A stretch of 64,000 bases of DNA from Chelatococcus composti (lineage in GTDB: Bacteria; Pseudomonadota; Alphaproteobacteria; Rhizobiales; Beijerinckiaceae): positions 62,001 through 126,000 of the forward strand of contig NZ_JACHEH010000007.1 of NCBI RefSeq assembly GCF_014201415.1, in the 5' to 3' direction. How positions within the stretch are numbered: the stretch's first letter is position 1; every line of letters starts with the position of its first letter. The position numbers were made by a program, and so were the translations under genes. Shown here one piece after another: positions 30,530-41,533 of the stretch. The notes beneath the pieces were generated by a model. It was given only the letters and a program-made list of their open reading frames with translations, ran no database searches and was not told the origin of the DNA.

Positions 30530-30838
30530 TGCCTGCCTCCGCGAAACGGTTGGGCGACCGTAGGCGGCGCCTTCCGCTACCGCAAGCCCGCCCGCGGCAC
30601 GAGCACACGCGCCAGCCATGCGTGCCACAGCAGGCATTCCGGTCCGCTTGCCGGCGGCCGGGGCTTGCGACAAGGGAGAACATTGATCGGCCAGCATCCC
30701 CCGGTCATGATCTGCATCAAGGCCGCAACGGTGCCCGGCGATCTAGAACGAGCCTGACGCCCGTATCAGCTCGTTTCGGGCGGAATAGCGGTCTGTGCGG
30801 CGGCGCACGCGCGGCTGCGGGCCTTCAGGAGAAGTCGG
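30530..30838. other. 309-base divergent intergenic region with an FNR/FixK-like box
   Basis: No credible gene was seen between the AlaX gene and the HlyD gene. The region contains the 14-base box at 30707-30720 described separately, and a weakly AT-rich stretch TCTAGA at 30742-30747, placed where a -10 element would fall if the box is centred at -41.5. The remainder is GC-rich with no strong hairpin. Confidence 0.6.
30707..30720. promoter_or_regulatory. FNR/FixK-like box upstream of the HlyD-RbbA-YhhJ genes
   Basis: ATGATCTGCATCAA matches the FNR/FixK consensus TTGAT-N4-ATCAA at nine of ten defined positions; only the first base differs. It lies 118 bases before the HlyD start. With the box at -41.5 the transcript would start near 30755. 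Matching by chance in this GC content is uncommon but possible. Confidence 0.5.
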
Positions 30839-31879
30839 ATGAGTTTGTCCCGTCTCGGTCGTCTCGCGCTGATTGCCGCCCTTCTTTCGGTTCCCGTCCT
30901 GCCGGCCGGCGAGGCGGCCCTCGGCGCCGGGGTCGCGCAGGCGCAGGGCAGGCTCGAGGCGCTGATCAACCGCCTGCGGCGAAACAGCCTGCCAGAGGGC
31001 ATCGTCAAGGCCAACGGCCGCATCGAGGCCGAACAGGTCGACATCGCGGCCAAGTATCCCGGCCGCCTCGTCGAGGTTCTCGTCGAGGAGGGCAGCATGG
31101 TCGAGGCCGGCCAGGTCGTCGCCCGCATGGACGATTCCGAGTACCGGGCGCAGCTGCGCGGTGCCGAGGCGCAGGTGCAGCGCGCCATCAAGGCCAAGGC
31201 GGAGGCTGAGGCGCTGATCGCCCAGCGCGAGAGCGACCGCACGCTCGCCCGCGCCGAGCTCGCCCGTGCCGAGGAACTCTTCGCCAAGGGCCACTTTTCC
31301 CAGGAGCGGCTCGACCAGCGGCGCAGCCAGATGAAGGCAGCCGATGCAGCGCTCCGCGCAGCCCAGGCGGCGCGCGACCAGGCCATCGCCGCCATCGAGG
31401 CGGCGCAGGCGGATGTCGCGCGGCTCGAGACGGTGCTCTCCGACACGGTGCTGAAGGCGCCGCGGCGCGGGCGCGTGCAGTACAAGCTCGTGCGCAGCGG
31501 CGAGGTGGTGGCCGCCGGCCAGCGCATCGTCACGCTGCTCGACCTCACCGATGTCTACATGACGATCTTCCTGCCCGCACGCGATGCCGGCCGGGTCATC
31601 CTCGGCGACGAGGCCCGCATCATCCTCGATCCCGTGCCGCAATACGTGGTGCCGGCCCGGGTTTCCTTCGTCGCAGCTGAGGCGCAGTTCACGCCGAAGG
31701 CGGTGGAGACAGCGGACGAGCGCGAGAAGCTGATGTTCCGCGTCAAGATCCGCATCGATCCCAATCTCCTCAAGCAATACGAGCCGCAGGTGAAGACCGG
31801 CGTGCGTGGCATCGGCTTCGTCCGCACCGTCAAGGACGCCGACTGGCCGACCGACCTCGCCATCCGGCTGCCGGACTGA
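30839..31879 (+). CDS. HlyD/EmrA-type membrane fusion protein, YhiI-like
   Basis: The 346-residue protein has an N-terminal signal or anchor ([16 protein letters not shown]). A lipoyl-like half motif follows near residue 60 ([18 protein letters not shown] and [19 protein letters not shown]). A long coiled-coil hairpin covers about 95-205, rich in Ala, Glu and Arg. The second lipoyl half is [20 protein letters not shown], with a beta-barrel after it. It should bridge the inner-membrane ABC exporter encoded by the next two genes to the outer membrane, perhaps through TolC, which is encoded about 11 kb away. It is separated by 19 bases from the rbbA-like gene. The order matches the E. coli yhiI-rbbA-yhhJ set. 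Confidence 0.9.
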
Positions 31880-31898
31880 GCCATCGGGGAGCTCTCCC

Positions 31899-34667
31899 AT
31901 GGAACTCGCCAGCCGTCCCGCGGCCCCGGCCGACGCCGGTGCGAACGCCGTCGTCACGCTGCGCGGGGTCACCCACCGCTACGGCAAGGTGCGGGCACTC
32001 GACGACGTGACGCTGTCGATCCCGGCCGGCTGCATGGCCGGCCTGATTGGCCCGGACGGGGTCGGCAAGTCGACGCTGCTCGCGCTCGCCGCCGGCGTGC
32101 GCAGGATCGGGGAAGGGGAGGTGCGGGTGCTCGGCGGCGACATGGCCGATGCCGCGCACCGCAGGGCGTGCGGCGCGCGTATCGCCTACATGCCGCAGGG
32201 GCTCGGCCGCAACCTCTATCCCACGCTCTCGGTCTACGAGAACCTCGACTTCTTCGCTCGCCTTTTCGGGCAGGGCGCCGAGGAGCGCCAGGCGCGCATC
32301 GCCGAACTTCTGGCGGCGACCGGGCTCGACCCGTTCCCGGACCGGCCCGCGGGCAAGCTCTCGGGCGGCATGAAGCAGAAGCTCAGCCTGTGCTGCGCGC
32401 TGATCCATGACCCGGACCTCATCATCCTCGACGAGCCGACGACGGGCGTCGACCCGCTGTCGCGCCGACAGTTCTGGGATCTCATCGAGCGCATCAGGCA
32501 GCGCCGGCCCGGCATCAGCGTCATCGTCGCCACGGCCTACATGGAGGAGGCCGAGCGCTTCGACTGGCTTGCCGCCATGCACGACGGCAAGGTGATCGCC
32601 ACCGGCTCGCCGGCCGAGGTGCGCGCACGAGCCGGGACGGACACGCTCGAAGAGGCCTTCATTGCCCTCCTGCCGGAGGAAAAGCGCCGCCAGCACCAGC
32701 CTGTCGTCGTGCGTCCGCGGGTGGCGAGCGATGGGCCGCCCGCCATCGAGGCGGAGGGGCTGACCTGCCGCTTCGGCGACTTCACAGCAGTCGACCATGT
32801 CAGCTTCCGCATCGCGCGCGGGGAGATCTTCGGCTTTCTCGGCTCCAACGGCTGCGGCAAGTCGACGACGATGAAGATGCTGACCGGCCTTCTGCCGGCG
32901 AGCGAGGGCTGGGCCAAGCTGTTCGGCGAGCCGCTCGATGCGGGCGACCTCGAGACGCGCCGGCGCGTCGGCTACATGTCGCAGTCCTTCTCGCTCTACG
33001 GCGAGTTGACGGTGCGGCAGAACCTCGAGCTGCACGCCCACCTCTTCCACATGCCGGCCGAAAGGGTCGCCTCGCGCGTGGAGGAAATGCTGCGGCGCTT
33101 CGACCTCGCGGAGGTTGCCGACGAGCGGCCCGAGAGCCTGCCGCTCGGCATCCGCCAGCGCCTGCAGCTTGCGGTGGCGGTCGTCCACGAGCCGGAAATG
33201 CTGATCCTCGACGAGCCGACCTCAGGCGTCGATCCGGTGGCGCGGGACGCGTTCTGGCGCTTCCTCATCGACCTGTCGCGCGACGAGGGGGTAACGATCT
33301 TCATCTCCACCCATTTCATGAACGAGGCCGCGCGCTGCGACCGCATCTCGCTGATGCACGCGGGCAAGGTGCTCGACGTGGGCACGCCGAAGGAGCTGGC
33401 AGAGCGTCACGGCGGCGGCGACATCGAGGAGGCCTTCGTCGCCTGCCTCGCCGAGGCCGCGGGTATCGACCTGTCGGCCGGAGAGGCGACGCCGGCGCCT
33501 GCGGCCCTGCCGCCGGCCACGGAGCCCGCGCAGCCGGCCCGCTCGTTCGACCTGCGCCGCCTCTGGGCCTACGCCCGGCGCGAGACGATGGAGCTGCTGC
33601 GCGATCCCATCCGTCTCGCCTTCGCGCTGCTCGGGCCGATCATCCTCATGATCACCTTCGGCTACGGCATCTCCTTCGATGTCGAGAAGCTCGCCTTCGC
33701 CGCCTTCGACCAGGACCAGTCGCTGGAGAGCCGGAAGCTCCTCGAGAGCTTCTCGGGCTCGCGCTATTTCGATGAGCGGGAGCCGATCTCCGACGCCGCC
33801 GAGATGGTGGACCGGCTGAAGAGCGGCGAGCTCAAGCTCGCCATCGAGATTCCGGCCGGCTTCGGGCGCGATCTCGTGGCCGGCCGGCAGCCGGAGGTCG
33901 GTGTGTGGCTCGACGGCGCCATGCCCTTCCGGGCCGAGACCACACGCGGCTACGTGACGGGGCTCGCGATGCAGTATCTCGAAACCGCAGCCACGGAGAA
34001 GGGCAGCTCCGTCAGCCTCGTGCCGGCCGACATCGAGACACGCTTCCGCTACAACCAGGCCTTCCGGAGCGTCTACGCCATCGTGCCCAGCGTCATCATG
34101 CTGATGCTTGTGCTGATCCCGGCCATCATGACGGCGGTGGGCGTGGTGCGCGAGAAGGAGACGGGCTCCATCGCCAACTTCCGTGCGACACCCGTCACCA
34201 AGCTGGAGTTCCTCGTCGGCAAGCAGCTGCCCTATGTCGTCATCGCGTTGGTGAGTTTCCTCACGCTCCTCGGCCTCGCGCTGCTGGTGTTCGGCGTGCC
34301 GGTGAAAGGCTCGCTCGCGACGCTGCTTCTGGCGACGCTGCTCTATATTTTCGCGACGACAGGCTTCGGCCTGTTCGTCTCGTGCTTCACGCGCACACAG
34401 GTGGCGGCGGTTTTCGCCACCTCCATCATCGCCATCATCCCGTCGGTCAACTTCTCGGGCCTTCTGGTGCCTGTCTCGTCGCTGTCGGGCAGCGCACGCA
34501 TCCTCGGGCTCGCTTTTCCCGCGGCGTGGTATCAGCCGGTGAGCGTCGGCACCTTCACCAAGAGCCTCGGCTTCGCAGACCTGTGGCTCAACCTCGTCAT
34601 GCTGGCGCTGTTCGCCGTCGGCTTCATCGTCGCGTCGCAGCTCGCGCTCGCCAAGCAGGAGCCGTGA
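31899..34667 (+). CDS. RbbA-like fused ABC transporter: two ATPase domains plus ABC-2 permease
   Basis: The 922-residue protein contains two nucleotide-binding domains and one permease domain. NBD1 (about 18-245) has GPDGVGKST at 51-59, signature LSGGMKQKL and Walker [17 protein letters not shown]2 (about 280-510) has GSNGCGKST, a degenerate signature [11 protein letters not shown] and [12 protein letters not shown]. The ABC-2 permease (about 555-922) has a first helix [18 protein letters not shown], a large periplasmic loop and five C-terminal helices. The same domain order is found in E. coli RbbA, first described as a ribosome-associated ATPase and in context an exporter. LPLG in place of LSGG in NBD2 also occurs in that family. 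It is followed after two bases by a second permease. Confidence 0.9.
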
Positions 34668-34669
34668 CA

Positions 34670-35839
34670 ATGAGCGGACAAGGGGAACGGCACCGCCTCA
34701 CGGCGCGCGGCATCGGGGGGAAGATCGCTAACACGCTGCGTCTCGCCGTGAAGGAACTGCGCAGCATCCGGGCCGACCCCATCCTCGTCGCGCTCATCCT
34801 CTACACCTTCACCGTCGCGATCTACGCGGTGGCGACGGGCGCGAAGACCGAGGCGGAGAACATGGCCATCGCGGTCGTCGACGAGGACCGTTCCGCCCTG
34901 TCGCGCCGCCTGCGCGACGCCTTCCTGCCGCCCCTGTTCAAGACGCCGGTCGAGATCGGTGCCGACGAGATCGACGCCGCCATGGACGCGGGGCGCTTCG
35001 TCTTCGTACTCGTCATTCCGCCGCGCTTCGAGGCGGACCTTCTGGCCGGCCGCAACCCCGAGCTTCAGGTGAACGTGGACGCCACCGCCATGACGCAGGC
35101 GGGCAACGGCGCCGTCTACGCACAGAACATCCTGACCAACGAGATCATCGCCTTCCTCCAGCGGCGGGAAGGCAGCGCCGCCCTGCCGGTCAACGTCGTT
35201 GTGCGGGCGATGTTCAACCCCAACCTCACCTCCGCCTGGTTCACCTCGGTGATGCAGGTGATCAACAACGTCACCATCCTGACCGTCATCCTGACGGGGG
35301 CTGCACTGATCCGCGAGCGCGAGCACGGTACCGTCGAGCATCTGCTCGTCATGCCGGTGACGCCCGTCGAGATCATGCTCGCCAAGATCCTGGCGAACGG
35401 CCTTGTCATCGTCGTTGCGGCCTCCCTCTCGCTCATCTTTGTGGTGGAGGGGCTGCTGGCCGTGCCCATCGCCGGGTCGATCCCGCTCTTTCTCGCCGGG
35501 GCGCTGCTCTATCAGTTCTCCGTGGCGGCGCTGGGCATCCTCATCGCCACCTTCTCGACGTCGATGGCCCAGTTCGGGCTGCTCGCCATCCCGGTGCTCA
35601 TCGGGCTCAACCTGCTGTCGGGTTCGACCACGCCGATGGAGAGCATGCCGGAGTGGCTGCAGTACGTGATGCAGCTTTCCCCCACGACGCATTTCGTCGC
35701 CTTCTCGCAGGCGGTCCTCTATCGTGGAGCGGGGATCGGCATCGTGATGTCGCAGATGCTGGCGCTCGCGGCCATCGGCGTCGTCTACTTCGCCGTCTCG
35801 CTGGGCCGTTTCCGCAAGGCGATCTTCAACGCCGGCTGA
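34670..35839 (+). CDS. ABC-2 type permease, YhhJ-like
   Basis: The 389-residue protein has one N-terminal helix (PILVALILYTFTVAIYAVATG), a periplasmic domain of about 150 residues (AENMAIAVVDEDRSALSRRL onward) and five C-terminal helices ending GRFRKAIFNAG. EREHGTVEHLLVMPVTPVEIMLAKI marks the ABC-2 family coupling region. It is the partner half-permease for the RbbA-like protein, two bases upstream. Together with the HlyD protein they should form one exporter with unknown cargo. The 3' end faces the alcohol dehydrogenase gene across a 49-base gap. Confidence 0.9.
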   Translation: MSGQGERHRLTARGIGGKIANTLRLAVKELRSIRADPILVALILYTFTVAIYAVATGAKTEAENMAIAVVDEDRSALSRRLRDAFLPPLFKTPVEIGADEIDAAMDAGRFVFVLVIPPRFEADLLAGRNPELQVNVDATAMTQAGNGAVYAQNILTNEIIAFLQRREGSAALPVNVVVRAMFNPNLTSAWFTSVMQVINNVTILTVILTGAALIREREHGTVEHLLVMPVTPVEIMLAKILANGLVIVVAASLSLIFVVEGLLAVPIAGSIPLFLAGALLYQFSVAALGILIATFSTSMAQFGLLAIPVLIGLNLLSGSTTPMESMPEWLQYVMQLSPTTHFVAFSQAVLYRGAGIGIVMSQMLALAAIGVVYFAVSLGRFRKAIFNAG

Positions 35840-35860
35840 CCCGGCCGGCGGGAGAGGGGG

Positions 35861-35881
35861 GGGCGGCTGCCGTCGCCGCCC
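35861..35881. terminator. Possible bidirectional hairpin between convergent yhhJ-like and adh genes
   Basis: GGGCGGC (35861-35867) and GCCGCCC (35875-35881) pair perfectly around a 7-base loop in the 49-base convergent gap. There is no T-tract on either strand, so intrinsic termination is uncertain; a role in 3' end stability is equally possible. Confidence 0.4.
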
Positions 35882-35888
35882 GCGGGGC

Positions 35889-36911
35889 TCAGGCAAGGTC
35901 GAGGACAACCCGCCCGTCGATGGCGCCCTTTTCCATCCGCTCGAACACGGCGTTGATGTTGTCCAGCCGGTCCCACGAGAAATGGGCCTTTACGGCACCG
36001 TCGCCGGCGAAGGCGAGCGCCTCCTCGAGATCCTGCCGCGTGCCGACGATGGAGCCGCGCACCGTGATGCGCTTCAGCACGGTGTCGAAGATCGGCATGG
36101 CGAAGCGGCCGGGCGGCAGGCCGACGAGGGCCATGGTGCCATGCGGCCGCAGCACGCCGAATGCCTGCTCGAAGGCGGCGGGCGAGACGGCCGTGACGAG
36201 GACACCATGCACGCCGCCGAGGCGCTTCTGCAGCTCGGCGACCGGATCGCTCTCGCGCGCATCGATGGCGATCTCGGCGCCGAGCGACCTGGCAAGAGCC
36301 AGCTTGTCGGGATGCACGTCGATGGCGGCCACGTGCATGCCCATGGCACGCGCATATTGCACGGCCATGTGGCCGAGGCCGCCGATGCCGGAGATTGCCA
36401 CCCACTCGCCGGGCCTCACCTCCGTCTCCTTGAGGCCCTTGTAGACCGTCACGCCCGCGCAGAGCACGGGTGCGGCCGGCCCCCAGTCGAGATTGTCCGG
36501 CAGGCGTCCGACGTAGTTCGGATCCGCGAGCGCATATTCGGCGAAGCTGCCGTTGACGGAATAGCCGGTGTTCTGCTGGCTGGCGCACAGGGTTTCCCAG
36601 CCGGTGCGGCAATGCGGGCAGTAGCCGCAGGCCGTGTGCAGCCACGGGATGCCGACCCGGTCGCCCTCCTTCACGCGCTTCACGTCCCGTCCCACCGCGG
36701 CGACGACGCCGACGCCCTCGTGGCCGGGAATGAACGGCAGGGTCGGCTTGACCGGCCAGTCGCCCTTCACCGCGTGCAGGTCGGTATGGCAGACGCCCGT
36801 CGCCGCGATCTTGACGAGGATCTGGTCCGGGCGCGGGGCCGGCACCTCCCATTCCTCGATGGTGAGCGGCTCGCCGAACACGCGGGCTATGGCGGCTTTC
36901 ATCTTGGGCAT
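35889..36911 (-). CDS. adhA: Zinc-dependent alcohol dehydrogenase, AdhA/AdhP type
   Basis: The 340-residue medium-chain dehydrogenase has catalytic zinc ligands Cys41 (TGVCHTDLHAVKGDW), His64 (GHEGVG) and a Cys in VLCAGVTVYKGL. The structural zinc cysteines are at 95, 98, 101 and 109 (CGYCPHCRTGWETLC), and the NAD site is ISGIGGLGHMAVQYA. It matches the propanol-preferring bacterial group and should interconvert short alcohols and aldehydes, for example reducing acetaldehyde to reoxidise NADH. AAGGAG lies eight bases before the ATG. It is transcribed away from phaC across a 240-base region with an FNR/FixK-like box. Confidence 0.93.
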   Translation of the reverse strand: MPKMKAAIARVFGEPLTIEEWEVPAPRPDQILVKIAATGVCHTDLHAVKGDWPVKPTLPFIPGHEGVGVVAAVGRDVKRVKEGDRVGIPWLHTACGYCPHCRTGWETLCASQQNTGYSVNGSFAEYALADPNYVGRLPDNLDWGPAAPVLCAGVTVYKGLKETEVRPGEWVAISGIGGLGHMAVQYARAMGMHVAAIDVHPDKLALARSLGAEIAIDARESDPVAELQKRLGGVHGVLVTAVSPAAFEQAFGVLRPHGTMALVGLPPGRFAMPIFDTVLKRITVRGSIVGTRQDLEEALAFAGDGAVKAHFSWDRLDNINAVFERMEKGAIDGRVVLDLA

Positions 36912-37022
36912 GGCACACTCCTTCGGTTGCTTTCTGTAGGAGGGGCAGGCGGAACCGCCGGGCCGGAAACCGCTGCGGCAGCTTCCGGCCACTGCATCGA
37001 CGCGGTGCATGTCCGAAGCTGG

Positions 37023-37028
37023 ATGATG
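37023..37028 (-). promoter_or_regulatory. Candidate -10 element of the adh promoter
   Basis: Read leftwards the hexamer is CATCAT, a 4-of-6 match to TATAAT. Its centre lies 31 bases from the centre of the FNR/FixK-like box at 37050-37063, the spacing of class II FNR-type promoters (box at -41.5). It would start the adh transcript near 37015. Confidence 0.35.
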
Positions 37029-37049
37029 CGCCCGCACGCGCCGGGCGCC

Positions 37050-37063
37050 TTGTCCGAGATCAA
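37050..37063. promoter_or_regulatory. FNR/FixK-like box between adhA and the phaC operon
   Basis: TTGTCCGAGATCAA has the TTG-N8-CAA frame of FixK/FNR sites. Its right half, ATCAA, is perfect and its left half matches three of five. It lies 88 bases before the phaC start and 138 bases before the divergent adh start, so it could serve either or both. A better -10 match is found on the adh side. Confidence 0.5.
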
Positions 37064-37151
37064 ACGCTGCGGCCCCGTGGCATGCCATGCTGCGGCGCAG
37101 CACGCAGATGCCTGGCGAGACGGTCGCCGGGCCGCACGCAAGGAACGCGAG

Positions 37152-38933
37152 ATGAACGATCCTCGTTCCCCGAAGCCGACGATGCCCGCCTGTCACGGCG
37201 AGAGCCTGGGGCTTGAGGGCTACCGCGCGCTCGACCGCATGCGGGAGGCGCTGACGGCGGCGTTGACCGGCGGCATCTCGCCGAGCTCGCTGGCGCTAGC
37301 CTGGTTCGACTGGTCCCTGCACCTCGCTTCCGCGCCGGGCAAGCGGCTGGAGCTTGCCGACAAGGCAGTGCGCAAGGCGGCGCGCTTCGCCGCCCACGTG
37401 GCCGCGGCGGCCCTGCACCCGGACACGCCGCCCTGCATCGAGCCGCTGCCGGGCGACCACCGCTTCCGCGCCGAGGCGTGGCGCAAGCCGCCCTTCAGCC
37501 TGTGGGCACAGGCTTTCCTGCTGCAGCAGCAATGGTGGCACAACGTCACCCACGAGGTGCCCGGCGTCAGTCCGCACCACGAGGCTGTCGTCTCCTTCGC
37601 CGTGCGGCAGCTGCTCGACATTTTCTCGCCGTCCAACTTCCCGCTCCTGAACCCGGAAGTGCTCGACAAGACGGTCGCGACCGCCGGTGCCAACTTTCTG
37701 GAGGGTTTCTCGAACTTTCTCGAGGACGTCACCCGCCAGGCGACCGGGCAGCCACCGGCGGGAGCGGAGGCGTTCCAGCCCGGTCGGGACGTGGCGGTGA
37801 CGCCGGGCAAGGTGATCTACCGAAACCACCTGATCGAACTCATCCAGTATGCGCCTGCGACGGAGACGGTCCTGGCCGAGCCGGTGCTGATCGTGCCGGC
37901 GTGGATCATGAAGTACTACATCCTCGACCTGTCGCCGCAGAATTCGCTGGTGCGCTACCTCGTGGGGCAGGGCCACACGGTCTTCTGCATCTCATGGCGC
38001 AATCCCGATGCCTCGGACCGCGACCTGTCGATGGACGACTACCGGCGCATGGGGGTGATGGCGGCGCTCGACGCGATCGGCGCCATCGTCCCCGGCCGGA
38101 AGGTCCATGCGGTCGGCTACTGCCTCGGCGGCACGCTCCTGTCGATTGCGGCGGCGGCCATGGCCCATGCCGGTGACGGTCGTCTGGCCTCGATGACGCT
38201 CCTTGCCGCGCAGACGGACTTCACCGAGCCGGGTGAGCTGGCGCTGTTCATCGACCACAGCCAGATGCACTTCCTCGAAAGCATGATGTGGAACAGGGGC
38301 TATCTCTCCGCCGACCAGATGTCGGGTGCCTTCCAGCTCCTGCGCTCCATCGACCTCATCTGGTCGCGGCACGTGCGCGAGTACCTGATGGGCGAGCGTA
38401 CACCCATGTTCGACATCATGGCCTGGAACGCCGACTCGACCCGCATGCCCTACCGCATGCACGCCGAATATCTGCAGCGCCTCTACATCGACAACGAACT
38501 GGCGAGCGGGCGCTTCATGATCGAGGGGCGGCCGGCTGCCCTGCAGAACATCCGCGTGCCCATGTTCGTCGTCGGCACGGAGCGGGATCACGTGGCGCCT
38601 TGGCGCTCGGTCTACAAGGTGCACCAGCTCTGTGACACCGACATCACCTTTGTGCTGGCGAGTGGGGGGCACAATGTCGGAATCGTCAGCGAGCCCGGCC
38701 GCGCCGGCCGCCATTTCCGCACGGGCTTCAAGCGTGCGTCCGACCTCTACCTGAGCCCGGACGAATGGCTGGCGGCGGCGACGGTGAAGGAGGGCTCCTG
38801 GTGGACCGAATGGGCCGCCTGGCTCGCCGGGCAGTCGACGCCCGAGCGCGTCCCGCCGCCGGCGATGGGCGCGCCGCGCAAGGGCTATCCGCCCCTGGCC
38901 GATGCGCCGGGGACCTACGTTTTCCAGAGGTGA
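37152..38933 (+). CDS. phaC: Poly-3-hydroxyalkanoate synthase (PhaC-like)
   Basis: The enzyme polymerises (R)-3-hydroxyacyl-CoA into storage polyester. The 593-residue protein has an N-terminal domain with WWHNVTHEVPGVSPHHEAVV and the region FLEGFSNFLEDVTRQATGQ. The catalytic lipase-like box is GYCLGGT with Cys324, an Asp lies in VGTERDHVAPWRSVYK, and a His in ASGGHNVGIV. Length fits class I synthases. The short 3' gap of 6 bases to the MaoC-Pta gene shows co-transcription. A PhaC-related gene in the same operon as pta and ackA is known in Sinorhizobium meliloti, so this may be the second, stress-type synthase and not the main one. Confidence 0.92.
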   Translation: MNDPRSPKPTMPACHGESLGLEGYRALDRMREALTAALTGGISPSSLALAWFDWSLHLASAPGKRLELADKAVRKAARFAAHVAAAALHPDTPPCIEPLPGDHRFRAEAWRKPPFSLWAQAFLLQQQWWHNVTHEVPGVSPHHEAVVSFAVRQLLDIFSPSNFPLLNPEVLDKTVATAGANFLEGFSNFLEDVTRQATGQPPAGAEAFQPGRDVAVTPGKVIYRNHLIELIQYAPATETVLAEPVLIVPAWIMKYYILDLSPQNSLVRYLVGQGHTVFCISWRNPDASDRDLSMDDYRRMGVMAALDAIGAIVPGRKVHAVGYCLGGTLLSIAAAAMAHAGDGRLASMTLLAAQTDFTEPGELALFIDHSQMHFLESMMWNRGYLSADQMSGAFQLLRSIDLIWSRHVREYLMGERTPMFDIMAWNADSTRMPYRMHAEYLQRLYIDNELASGRFMIEGRPAALQNIRVPMFVVGTERDHVAPWRSVYKVHQLCDTDITFVLASGGHNVGIVSEPGRAGRHFRTGFKRASDLYLSPDEWLAAATVKEGSWWTEWAAWLAGQSTPERVPPPAMGAPRKGYPPLADAPGTYVFQR

Positions 38934-38939
38934 TGCGGC

Positions 38940-40340
38940 ATGAGCGACTTTCTCCGCAACCGCACCTTCGACGAGCTCAGCCCGGGCGACAGCGCCTCGC
39001 TGGTGCGAGTCGTCGGTCGCGACGACATCGAACTGTTCGCGGCCGTCTCCGGCGACGTGAACCCGGCCCATCTCGACGCGGCCTTCGCGGCAACCGACAT
39101 GTTCGGCCACGTTGTCGCGCATGGCATGTGGACGGCGGCGCTGGTCTCTGCCGCGATCGGCACGGAGCTGCCGGGCCCCGGCACCATCTATCTCGGGCAG
39201 GAGCTGAAGTTCCTGAAGCCTGTCGCGCCAGGCGACACCATCACGGTGCGCGTGAACGTGCGGGAGAAGCGCCCCGAGAAACGCGTCGTCCTGCTCGACA
39301 CTACCTGCACCAACCAGCGGGGCGAGGAGGTGCTGAGCGGCGTCGCCACGGTGATCGCGCCGGACCGGCGTATCGAATGGCCGCGCAAGCGCCTGCCCGA
39401 CATCTCGCTGCGCCGGCATGACCGCTATGAGGCCTTCGTGGCCAGGGCGCGCCAGGCCTCGCCGCTGCGCGCGGCCATCGTGCATCCCTGCTCGGCCGCC
39501 GCCATCAAGGCGGCCGTGGAAGTGCGGGATGAGGGGCTGCTGGATCCGCTCCTTGTCGGGCCCGAGGCGAAGATCCGCGCCGCGGCCGAGGCGGCGCAGG
39601 TGTCGCTGGACGGTATCGCGATCGAGCCCGTGCCGCACAGCCACGCCGCGGCGGAGCGGGCGGTCGAGCTCGCCGTTGCCGGCAAGGTCTCTGTTCTCGT
39701 CAAGGGCAGCCTGCACACGGATGAGCTGCTCGGCGCGGTGGTGGCCCCGTCCTCAGGCCTCAGGACCGAGCGTCGCATCAGTCACGTCTACGCCATGGAC
39801 GTGCCGGCCTACGACAAGCCGCTCATCGTCACCGACGCGGCGGTCAACATCCGGCCGACGCTCGACCACAAGCGCGACATCTGCCAGAACGCCATAGACC
39901 TGCTGCACGTCCTCGGCATGGAGGAGCCGCTGGTGGCGGTGCTCGCCGCCGTGGAGACGGTCAATCCCAAGATGCCGGCGACGCTGGACGCGGCGGCCCT
40001 CACGGTGATGGCCGCGCGCGGCCAGATCACGGGAGCGCGCGTCGATGGGCCGCTCGCCTTCGACAACGCCATCAGCACGGATGCCGCGCGCACCAAAGGC
40101 ATCGTCTCGCCGGTCGCCGGCCGGGCCGACATCCTGCTGGTGCCGGACCTTGAGGCCGGCAACATGCTGGCCAAGCAGCTCATCTATTTCGCGGGAGCGA
40201 CGGCGGCCGGGCTGGTCCTCGGCGCGCGCGTGCCCATCGTCCTGACGAGCCGCGCCGACCCGCTGTCGGCGCGCATCGCCTCGGCGGCGCTGGCGCGGCT
40301 CGCCGCCGAACCGCGTCCTCTGGAGGGCAAGGGCCCATGA
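38940..40340 (+). CDS. MaoC dehydratase fused to phosphate acetyl/butyryltransferase
   Basis: The 466-residue protein joins two domains. Residues 1-145 form an (R)-specific enoyl-CoA hydratase (MaoC) with AAVSGDVNPAHLDAAFAATD and FGHVVAHGM, the hydratase-2 motif. Residues 155-466 form a Pta/Ptb domain with LDPLLVGPEAKIRAAAE, the AMDVPAYDKPLIVTDAAVN block and LVPDLEAGNMLAKQL. The hydratase could make (R)-3-hydroxybutyryl-CoA from crotonyl-CoA for PhaC; the transferase would convert acyl-CoA plus phosphate to acyl phosphate for the kinase. Whether it prefers acetyl or butyryl groups cannot be told. It overlaps ackA by four bases (ATGA). Confidence 0.92.
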   Translation: MSDFLRNRTFDELSPGDSASLVRVVGRDDIELFAAVSGDVNPAHLDAAFAATDMFGHVVAHGMWTAALVSAAIGTELPGPGTIYLGQELKFLKPVAPGDTITVRVNVREKRPEKRVVLLDTTCTNQRGEEVLSGVATVIAPDRRIEWPRKRLPDISLRRHDRYEAFVARARQASPLRAAIVHPCSAAAIKAAVEVRDEGLLDPLLVGPEAKIRAAAEAAQVSLDGIAIEPVPHSHAAAERAVELAVAGKVSVLVKGSLHTDELLGAVVAPSSGLRTERRISHVYAMDVPAYDKPLIVTDAAVNIRPTLDHKRDICQNAIDLLHVLGMEEPLVAVLAAVETVNPKMPATLDAAALTVMAARGQITGARVDGPLAFDNAISTDAARTKGIVSPVAGRADILLVPDLEAGNMLAKQLIYFAGATAAGLVLGARVPIVLTSRADPLSARIASAALARLAAEPRPLEGKGP

Positions 40341-41533
40341 CAGGCGATCTTCTCGTCACCTTCAACGCCGGTTCCTCGACGATCAAGATCGGCCTGTTCG
40401 AGACCGGCGATGGCAAGGCCCGGCGCATCGCCCGCGGCGTCATCGACCTGCGCCATGAGCCGCCGGTGTTCCGGCTCGACGAGGGGCCACAGCGATTCGA
40501 AACGGCTCTTTCGGCTCCTGCCGAGGACGTGCGGGGACTGCTGGGCGAAACCTTCGGCCTCGTCGGCGAGCATGTGAATCTCGATCGCGTTGGGGCCGCG
40601 GGTATTCGCGTGGTGCACGGGGGAGGGGTCTTCACCGGGCCTGTGCTGATCGACGACGAAGTCGTCGGCAAGCTCGACGAGCTGACCCTTTTGGCACCGC
40701 TCCACCAGCCGCAGAGCCTGCGCATCATCCGTGGGCTGAGGCATCTGCGGCCTGATCTGCCACTCTGCGCCAGCTTCGACACGGCCTTCCACCAGAGCCA
40801 GGCCGACGTGGTACGCCGCTTCGCCCTGCCGCGGGCATTGCACGACGAGGGAATCAGGCGCTACGGCTTCCATGGCCTGTCCTACAAGTTCATCGCCGGC
40901 GAACTGGCGCGCCGCGCGCCGCAGACGGCGGCCGGCAAGGTGGTCGTCGCCCATCTGGGCAGCGGCGCCAGCCTGTGCGCGCTCGAGAGCGGCGTGAGTC
41001 GCGACACCAGCATGGGCTTCTCGACCCTCGACGGCATTCCCATGGCGACTCGCTGCGGGGCGCTCGACCCCGGCGTCCTCCTGCACCTCATGGGGCAGAA
41101 GGGGCTGCCCCTCGGCGCCGTGGAGGACCTGCTCTACCACCGCTCGGGCCTGCTCGGCGTCTCAGGCATCAGTGCGGACAGCCGCGTGCTCCTCGAAAGT
41201 GACGACGAGAGGGCGAGGGAGGCCATCGAGCTCTTCTGCTTCCGCATCGCCGGCGAGATCGGGCGACTCGCCGTGACTCTCGGCGGGATCGACGGAATCG
41301 TCTTCACGGCCGGTGTTGGCGAGAATCAGCCGCGTATCCGCGCCGGAGTCTGCGCGCGGCTGGGCTGGCTCGGCGTCGCCCTCGATGCGCAGGCGAATGC
41401 CGCCAACGCGCCGCGCATCAGTACGGGGGACAGCCGCGTCGCCGTCCTCGTCATCCCCACGGACGAGGAGCAGGTGATCGCAGACGAGACGCTGATGGTT
41501 GTCACGGGCACCGGCGGCGATTCCCCCAGTTGA
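40337..41533 (+). CDS. ackA: Acetate/propionate-family kinase
   Basis: The 398-residue enzyme makes ATP from ADP and acyl phosphate. It has FNAGSSTIKIGLFE at the N-terminus, CASFDTAFHQSQ with the conserved Asp, HLGSGASLCALESG (phosphate loop), and GGIDGIVFTAGVGENQPRIR. It is translationally coupled to the preceding acyltransferase. Together they give substrate-level phosphorylation from acyl-CoA, useful when respiration is limited. Butyrate kinase activity cannot be excluded. The 149 bases after it, up to the tRNA gene, hold a small hairpin but no gene. Confidence 0.93.
   Translation: MTGDLLVTFNAGSSTIKIGLFETGDGKARRIARGVIDLRHEPPVFRLDEGPQRFETALSAPAEDVRGLLGETFGLVGEHVNLDRVGAAGIRVVHGGGVFTGPVLIDDEVVGKLDELTLLAPLHQPQSLRIIRGLRHLRPDLPLCASFDTAFHQSQADVVRRFALPRALHDEGIRRYGFHGLSYKFIAGELARRAPQTAAGKVVVAHLGSGASLCALESGVSRDTSMGFSTLDGIPMATRCGALDPGVLLHLMGQKGLPLGAVEDLLYHRSGLLGVSGISADSRVLLESDDERAREAIELFCFRIAGEIGRLAVTLGGIDGIVFTAGVGENQPRIRAGVCARLGWLGVALDAQANAANAPRISTGDSRVAVLVIPTDEEQVIADETLMVVTGTGGDSPS

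What the first reader, a model, noticed from the sequence alone, without database searches (positions are those of the whole stretch)
30707..41533. Compact low-oxygen island: exporter, alcohol dehydrogenase and acyl-phosphate/PHA operon with two FNR/FixK-like boxes
Seen: a HlyD-RbbA-YhhJ exporter set, adhA, and phaC, maoC::pta, ackA lie together, and both upstream regions carry FNR/FixK-like boxes (30707-30720 and 37050-37063). Known: FNR and FixK bind TTG-N8-CAA type sites; grouping of ackA, pta, adh and PHA genes in low-oxygen loci is described in Burkholderia (lxa locus), and a phaC-like, pta, ackA operon in S. meliloti is stress-inducible. Inference: the island disposes of reductant (alcohol, polyester) and gains ATP from acyl-CoA when oxygen falls, while the exporter ships an unknown product. 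The tie between the RbbA-type exporter and this metabolism is the undescribed part.
Basis: partly seen in the sequence, partly recalled or inferred. Interest (0 to 1): 0.72.

Follow-up and report, generated by a model that had tools for sequence, protein, structure and literature searches.

The report
Low-oxygen metabolism genes with exporter
A small gene cluster that probably helps an alphaproteobacterium cope when oxygen runs low pairs a polyester and acyl-phosphate operon with a poorly understood membrane exporter, and this exporter often carries the same kind of oxygen-regulator DNA switch in other bacteria too.

Summary
The genes are as named: hlyD-rbbA-yhhJ exporter, adh, phaC, maoC::pta, ackA. 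The fusion's second half is nearer to phosphate butyryltransferase than to classical Pta. The two boxes are imperfect and not beyond chance by letters alone, but are the only intergenic one-mismatch TTGA-N6-TCAA matches in the window and are conserved in two congeners. The genome has fixL-fixJ-fixK and FixK-type sites before ccoN and the fixK block. In relatives 7 of 25 phaC upstream regions hold a perfect box. The undescribed tie recurs: 12 of 50 family RbbA loci lie within 10 kb of a pta-type gene (about 0.5 expected), and in 37 class-wide loci 8 have phaC nearby, though only 1 has pta, about 11 kb off. Upstream of hlyD a box within one mismatch stands in 17 of 77 named and 11 of 35 class-wide loci (best controls 3 and 1). 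Best reading: a FixLJ-FixK low-oxygen island of a known kind, in which the RbbA-type exporter is a recurrent, apparently unreported member. Induction, cargo and flux are untested.

The parts
30707..30720 (.). box 1, FixK/FNR-like, ATGATCTGCATCAA, 118 bases before hlyD
   Evidence: 13 of 14 columns identical in three congeners; G018 has ATGACTTGCATCAA between divergent phaC and hlyD
30839..31879 (+). hlyD-type periplasmic adaptor
31899..34667 (+). rbbA, two ATP-binding domains and one ABC-2 membrane domain
   Evidence: NF033858 over cut-off; Pfam
34670..35839 (+). second ABC-2 permease (yhhJ-type)
35889..36911 (-). zinc-type alcohol dehydrogenase, AdhP-like
   Evidence: NF006940 348.4 bits, cut-off 344
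37050..37063 (.). box 2, FixK/FNR-like, TTGTCCGAGATCAA, between divergent adh and phaC
   Evidence: 13 of 14 columns identical in three congeners
37152..38933 (+). phaC, polyhydroxyalkanoate synthase, class I-like
   Evidence: PF07167, PF12551; TIGR01838 543 bits, under cut-off 623
38940..40340 (+). maoC::pta fusion, (R)-specific enoyl-CoA hydratase plus phosphate acyltransferase
   Evidence: NF006045 over cut-off; nearest solved structures phosphate butyryltransferase and (R)-specific enoyl-CoA hydratase
40337..41533 (+). ackA, acetate/propionate-family kinase
   Evidence: NF005462 over cut-off

Best explanation
A low-oxygen island under a FixL-FixJ-FixK cascade. Shown: the genes, a fixL-fixJ-receiver-fixK-hemN block elsewhere in the genome, FixK-type sites before ccoN and before the receiver-fixK genes, imperfect but conserved boxes before both units, and recurrence of box and neighbourhood in relatives. 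Inferred: when oxygen falls FixK binds box 1 and box 2 and raises the exporter, phaC-maoC::pta-ackA and perhaps the divergent adh. The hydratase half supplies (R)-3-hydroxyacyl-CoA to PhaC, so that polymer takes up carbon and electrons; the acyltransferase half and AckA turn acyl-CoA into acid and ATP; Adh re-oxidises NAD(P)H. HlyD-RbbA-YhhJ is a complete ABC-2 exporter made under the same condition; its cargo is unknown, my guess being a lipophilic or amphipathic end product or noxious compound.
For: fixL, fixJ, receiver, fixK, hemN in one block (fixJ and hemN over their cut-offs). 23 TTGA-N6-TCAA sites against 6; of 15 examined, 14 are not inside a called gene, and a further one lies 141 bases before ccoN. 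Perfect box in 7 of 25 phaC upstream regions of the family, controls 0. phaC-maoC::pta-ackA next to the fixLJ-K block in G061, about 4 kb from it in G009 and (cut) G050; pta-ackA about 5 kb from it in G037. Exporter box: 17 of 77 named loci, 11 of 35 class-wide loci within one mismatch, best controls 3 and 1; 5 perfect in each, controls 0. 12 of 50 family RbbA loci within 10 kb of pta, 0.49 expected. One box between divergent phaC and hlyD in L131, L139, L141, L097. Published FixK2-dependent genes of Bradyrhizobium include phaC2, an acetate kinase, an efflux adaptor and a box starting ATGATCTG (PMC9104804, passages and part of Table 2).
Against: The window's own boxes are imperfect and not beyond chance by letters alone. 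60 of 77 named and 24 of 35 class-wide hlyD regions have no box within one mismatch. Adh regions: 0 of 6; maoC::pta regions without adjacent phaC: 1 of 14. Box and linkage are not correlated on the tree. Linkage to pta is rare class-wide (1 of 37, about 11 kb apart). FixK (212 bits, cut-off 300) and FixL (589, cut-off 850) score under their curated cut-offs. Other genes behind the genome's sites include unremarkable ones (FAA hydrolase, galactarate/altronate dehydratase-like, aminotransferase, ABC permease, MarR, AraC). No expression data.
Confidence: 0.66

Rival explanations
1. The metabolic operon is FixK-controlled, but the exporter beside it is a general exporter whose box is chance or vestigial; the two are neighbours without a shared condition.
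For: Most exporter loci elsewhere have neither linkage nor a box within one mismatch; box 1 is imperfect.
Against: Exporter boxes exceed all control half-sites in the named and the class-wide set and exceed other first-of-operon genes of the same loci, 17 of 78 against 38 of 453; box 1 is conserved in congeners.
Confidence: 0.18
2. The RbbA protein acts mainly on ribosomes, as reported for E. coli RbbA (recalled), and belongs to a low-oxygen slow-down of translation, not to export of a metabolite.
For: The model's name; a FixK-type site also stands 85 bases before a ribosome hibernation factor in this genome.
Against: RbbA stands with hlyD and a second permease in nearly all loci seen where the contig allows, which fits an exporter.
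Confidence: 0.07
3. The operon is phosphate-controlled (PhoB), as recalled for the S. meliloti phaC-like-pta-ackA operon.
For: Similar gene content to the recalled operon; 3 of 31 phaC upstream regions have a Pho box with at most 3 mismatches.
Against: Shuffled Pho half-sites give mean 0.92 and maximum 5, so 3 is not enriched; the window's best Pho match has 5 mismatches before phaC and 4 before hlyD.
Confidence: 0.04
4. Both boxes and the neighbourhood are accidents; the genes are expressed independently of oxygen.
For: Box quality by letters alone is at chance level.
Against: Conservation, recurrence in relatives.
Confidence: 0.05

Closest known systems
FixK2 regulon of Bradyrhizobium diazoefficiens (PMC9104804, PMC10888616: passages and part of Table 2)
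   Same: phaC2, a phosphoketolase-acetate kinase unit, a metallo-beta-lactamase-fold protein, stress proteins and an efflux periplasmic adaptor (bll4634) fall in fixK2 mutants and have boxes; one box starts ATGATCTG as box 1 does
   Different: phaC2 is not described there as joined to maoC::pta-ackA; whether bll4634 belongs to an RbbA exporter could not be settled here
lxa locus of Burkholderia cenocepacia (PMC6127331, PMC9733578, PMC9104464, PMC3759415: passages)
   Same: Low-oxygen cluster with a phosphate acetyl/butyryl transferase, a zinc alcohol dehydrogenase and acetoacetyl-CoA reductase
   Different: About 50 genes with six universal stress proteins; no RbbA exporter is mentioned in the passages seen
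S. meliloti phaC-like-pta-ackA operon (recalled, Summers 1999; not found)
   Same: phaC-like gene, pta, ackA together
   Different: Recalled as PhoB-controlled; no Pho-box signal here
E. coli yhiI-rbbA-yhhJ (recalled; listing of PMC9962212)
   Same: HlyD-like adaptor, RbbA, YhhJ
   Different: No phaC/pta neighbourhood known to me; not examined here

Membership tests
RbbA-type ABC exporter | RbbA model over its curated score | tested here: met
   1513 bits, cut-off 1050
RbbA-type ABC exporter | adjacent adaptor and second permease | tested here: met
   hlyD and yhhJ-type genes on both sides
FixK/FNR regulon | FixL, FixJ and FixK in the genome | tested here: met
   best models FixL, FixJ, FixK in one block; FixL and FixK under their curated cut-offs
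FixK/FNR regulon | consensus box before the unit | tested here: inconclusive
   one mismatch each to TTGA-N6-TCAA, conserved in congeners
FixK/FNR regulon | low-oxygen, FixK-dependent expression | not testable with these tools
   needs RNA
Bifunctional enoyl-CoA hydratase/phosphate acyltransferase (PRK08190) | model over its curated score, both domains | tested here: met
   740 bits, cut-off 282; MaoC and PTA_PTB domains
Classical phosphate acetyltransferase (TIGR00651) | model over its curated score | tested here: not met
   61 bits, cut-off 311; the phosphate butyryltransferase model gives 284, itself under its cut-off of 410.5
Class I PHA synthase | TIGR01838 over its curated score | tested here: not met
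   543 bits, cut-off 623; Pfam PhaC_N over its cut-off
lxa locus | universal stress proteins within the cluster | tested here: not met
   none among the seven island genes; the rest of the window was not scanned for them

The most novel reading that the evidence does not exclude
The HlyD-RbbA-YhhJ exporter is a recurrent output of the FNR/FixK/Anr low-oxygen response in Alphaproteobacteria and beyond: it carries the box even where it stands alone, settles again and again beside phaC, acyl-phosphate genes and stress-gene islands, at times sharing one box with phaC, and it ships a product made when oxygen is short.
Probability: 0.5. Interest if true: 0.66.

Novelty: new variant of a known kind. 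Interest (0 to 1): 0.54.

Why it matters
RbbA-type exporters are widespread and, as far as I know, without an agreed role. A recurrent place in FixK/FNR-controlled low-oxygen loci names a condition in which to look for phenotype and cargo, with a simple test (rbbA deletion at low oxygen). The fused hydratase/phosphate acyltransferase would join polymer making and ATP making at one branch point.

Tried and rejected
Phosphate control (Pho box): not enriched. Recent acquisition: GC of the island (0.66-0.70) is like that of the flanks (0.64-0.72). Empty site at alaX: pcm and tolC were not found near alaX in the six relatives fetched (L197-L202), so no empty site can be read. Another Pta in the genome: the two other PTA_PTB hits are in proteins whose best model is NADP-dependent malic enzyme, though under its curated cut-off. 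Bradyrhizobium bll4634 as RbbA adaptor: the one Rhodopseudomonas locus at hand (L191) has no box within 2 mismatches before hlyD, and its upstream DNA gave no support; left open.

Limits of the counts. In one search the numbers of loci per genome were typed by hand; the expectation of 2.3 for the 16 of 80 named loci assumes six such loci per 4.5 Mb. The 80 named loci are the best 80 of at least 594 candidates, several have short flanks, and some are near-copies. In one search one upstream region (L150) was cut out wrongly; one search recounts without it (77 regions instead of 78; unlinked 11 of 59), still uses 17 of 78. Family loci in the tree were partly fetched because they were linked; the 106 rows leave out fragments and L081-L083. 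Neighbour families: 101 of 220 listed neighbour proteins were scanned. Of the 23 genome sites, 15 fetched loci plus the ccoN site were examined, with a crude codon-usage gene caller; one of the 14 'intergenic' sites (L023) overlaps a called start. Two of six family hlyD matches within one mismatch (L108, L110) overlap the start codon of near-identical loci and probably mean nothing. The 7 perfect phaC boxes come from 7 loci of 4 genera. Names c18, c19, c10, c11 in relatives rest on clustering with the own genome's fixL, fixJ, receiver and fixK.

Papers: passages of PMC9104804 (also the first part of its tables section), PMC10888616, PMC6127331, PMC9104464, PMC3759415 and PMC9733578; all others only as search listings. 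That the RbbA exporter is unreported as a FixK/FNR target rests (RbbA with FixK: 0 papers) and 67 in an open-licence library.

Full report
What is there. The window is G000:C7:62001-126000 of a 3.7 Mb genome, 99.99% complete. Seven genes lie from 30839 to 41533: hlyD, rbbA and a second ABC-2 permease on the + strand; an AdhP-like alcohol dehydrogenase on the - strand; phaC, a maoC::pta fusion and ackA on the + strand. RbbA is well over its curated score and has two ATP-binding domains and one membrane domain. The fusion is over the score of the bifunctional enoyl-CoA hydratase/phosphate acetyltransferase model, but its second domain scores 284 bits with the phosphate butyryltransferase model and 61 with classical Pta, and its best match among solved structures is a phosphate butyryltransferase. 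The two other PTA_PTB hits in the genome are malic-enzyme-type proteins. GC is like that of the flanks. Neighbours are housekeeping-like: alanyl-tRNA editing protein and sulfurtransferase on one side, tRNA-Asn, tRNA-Cys and an isoaspartate methyltransferase-like gene on the other. Two congeners, G090 and G058, have the same seven genes in the same order.

The boxes. They gain weight in two ways. Of five one-mismatch matches to TTGA-N6-TCAA in the window these two alone are intergenic. And both are conserved in the two congeners inside diverged DNA (13 of 14 columns). The first half of box 1, ATGATCTG, also begins a published box (ATGATCTGGGTCAA) of a FixK2-dependent unit of Bradyrhizobium (PMC9104804).

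The regulator. The genome has fixL-fixJ-receiver-fixK-hemN on G000:C4. TTGA-N6-TCAA occurs 23 times against 6 for the backward pattern. Of 15 sites examined 14 are not inside a called gene, and a further one lies 141 bases before ccoN, the high-affinity oxidase gene. Genes behind other sites include the receiver gene that precedes fixK and a second CRP/FNR-type regulator, a universal stress protein, a second phaC, a ribosome hibernation factor, a P-type ATPase and a thiolase-like protein, but also unremarkable genes such as an FAA hydrolase, a galactarate/altronate dehydratase-like protein and a branched-chain aminotransferase.

Relatives, metabolic operon. The fusion was sought in 99 genomes of the own family (probably Beijerinckiaceae in the wide sense, since one member, G095, has a contig and an RbbA protein identical in length and sequence to those of a named Roseiarcus record; inference). 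In 74 upstream regions of exporter, phaC, pta and adh units the box is perfect in 7 and within one mismatch in 14; the best of 39 permuted half-sites reaches 0 and 2. All 7 perfect ones are before phaC (7 of 25 phaC regions, 4 genera). In G061 the phaC-maoC::pta-ackA operon lies next to the same fixL-fixJ-receiver-fixK block; in G009 and G050 it is about 4 kb away (G050 cut by the fetched stretch); in G037 pta-ackA is about 5 kb away.

Relatives, exporter in the family. RbbA was sought in the same 99 genomes. Of 50 loci, 12, in 7 genera, lie within 10 kb of a pta-type gene where about 0.49 are expected, and one more (G018) lies beside phaC. One genome, G088, has four such modules.

Relatives, exporter elsewhere. 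Among 80 named loci chosen by likeness to the family's RbbA, 16 have phaC, pta or ackA within the flanks: Bosea and a near relative, Methylobacterium/Methylorubrum, Sulfitobacter, Ruegeria, Tistrella, Labrys, Pseudomonas, Dechloromonas, Contendobacter and unnamed relatives. Methylocapsa aurea has fixK 0.5 kb upstream and fixJ-fixL downstream of the exporter, Parvibaculum sedimenti fixL-fixJ 6 kb away. On a quick tree of 106 RbbA proteins the linkage label needs 17 changes, at least 15 on well-supported branches; shuffled labels need 24.2 on average, so the label is also clustered. The arrangements differ (co-directional, divergent, downstream), which speaks for repeated association, not one inherited block. 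A less biased set, the 37 RbbA loci over cut-off from 385 genomes of the class, has phaC within the flanks in 8, maoC::pta-ackA in 1 (about 11 kb away) and fixK in 1. So class-wide the usual partner is phaC; the link to pta is mainly a matter of the family and its nearer relatives.

Exporter boxes. Upstream of hlyD a box within one mismatch stands in 17 of 77 named loci (5 perfect; best controls 3 and 0), in 11 of 59 of these that are unlinked (best control 2), and in 11 of 35 class-wide loci (5 perfect; best controls 1 and 0). Other first-of-operon genes in the named loci have it in 38 of 453, so these neighbourhoods are box-rich and the exporter more so (17 of 78, Fisher p 0.001). In Ruegeria, Sulfitobacter, Methylobacterium and G002 one box lies between the divergent phaC and hlyD. 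Box-bearing or close neighbours elsewhere include GroEL, BON and Host_attach proteins in Rhizobium johnstonii pRL9, Hsp20 and a universal stress protein-like protein in R. tropici, Hsp20 and an alcohol dehydrogenase in Aurantimonas, and an RNA-type metallo-beta-lactamase in Labrys. Over 101 neighbour proteins scanned, the commonest family was metallo-beta-lactamase (5), with two phosphoketolases and two Usp proteins; most families occurred once.

Against. Most exporter loci have neither linkage nor a box within one mismatch; box and linkage are not correlated on the tree; adh regions have no box within one mismatch (0 of 6) and maoC::pta regions without adjacent phaC only 1 of 14; the window's boxes are imperfect; the sets hold related genomes; nothing here measures expression.

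How it works, most likely. Shown: genes, regulator genes, boxes, recurrence. Inferred: FixL senses low oxygen, FixJ raises FixK, FixK activates both units. The hydratase domain and PhaC move acyl-CoA into polymer; the acyltransferase domain and AckA make ATP and an acid; Adh re-oxidises cofactor; the exporter removes an unknown, perhaps lipophilic, product. Several relatives add a FabI-type enoyl reductase or a PhaB-type reductase, which would allow a route from 3-hydroxybutyryl-CoA by crotonyl-CoA to butyryl-phosphate; this is a guess that a substrate assay would settle.

Known or new. FixK2 dependence of phaC2, an acetate kinase and an efflux adaptor is published for Bradyrhizobium (PMC9104804, PMC10888616: passages, part of Table 2), and a low-oxygen cluster with a phosphate acyltransferase and an alcohol dehydrogenase for Burkholderia (PMC6127331: passages). 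What I did not find in print is the RbbA-type exporter as a recurrent, box-bearing part of this response. Hence: a new variant of a known kind.

Noticed in passing
L078, L080, L083, L091 (G088 contigs C131, C165, C118, C133): One relative has four exporter plus phaC-maoC::pta-ackA modules; in three of them a TetR-type regulator gene lies between the metabolic genes and the exporter or beside phaC.
   Followed up: partly
L019 and L017, sites at 1501-1514 (own genome, outside the window): FixK-type sites stand 85 bases before a ribosome hibernation factor (S30AE) and 121 bases before a second phaC.
   Followed up: no
L071 8986-9360: A single-domain response regulator between fixJ and fixK, kept with them in four relatives.
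   Followed up: no
L152: A record labelled Oceanobacillus (Bacillota) holds an RbbA locus that groups with alphaproteobacterial ones; mislabelled, contaminated or transferred.
   Followed up: no
L157 836-2506: Beside a linked rbbA-maoC::pta-ackA locus lies a protein with a sulfur-transferase and a sulfide:quinone reductase-like part.
   Followed up: no
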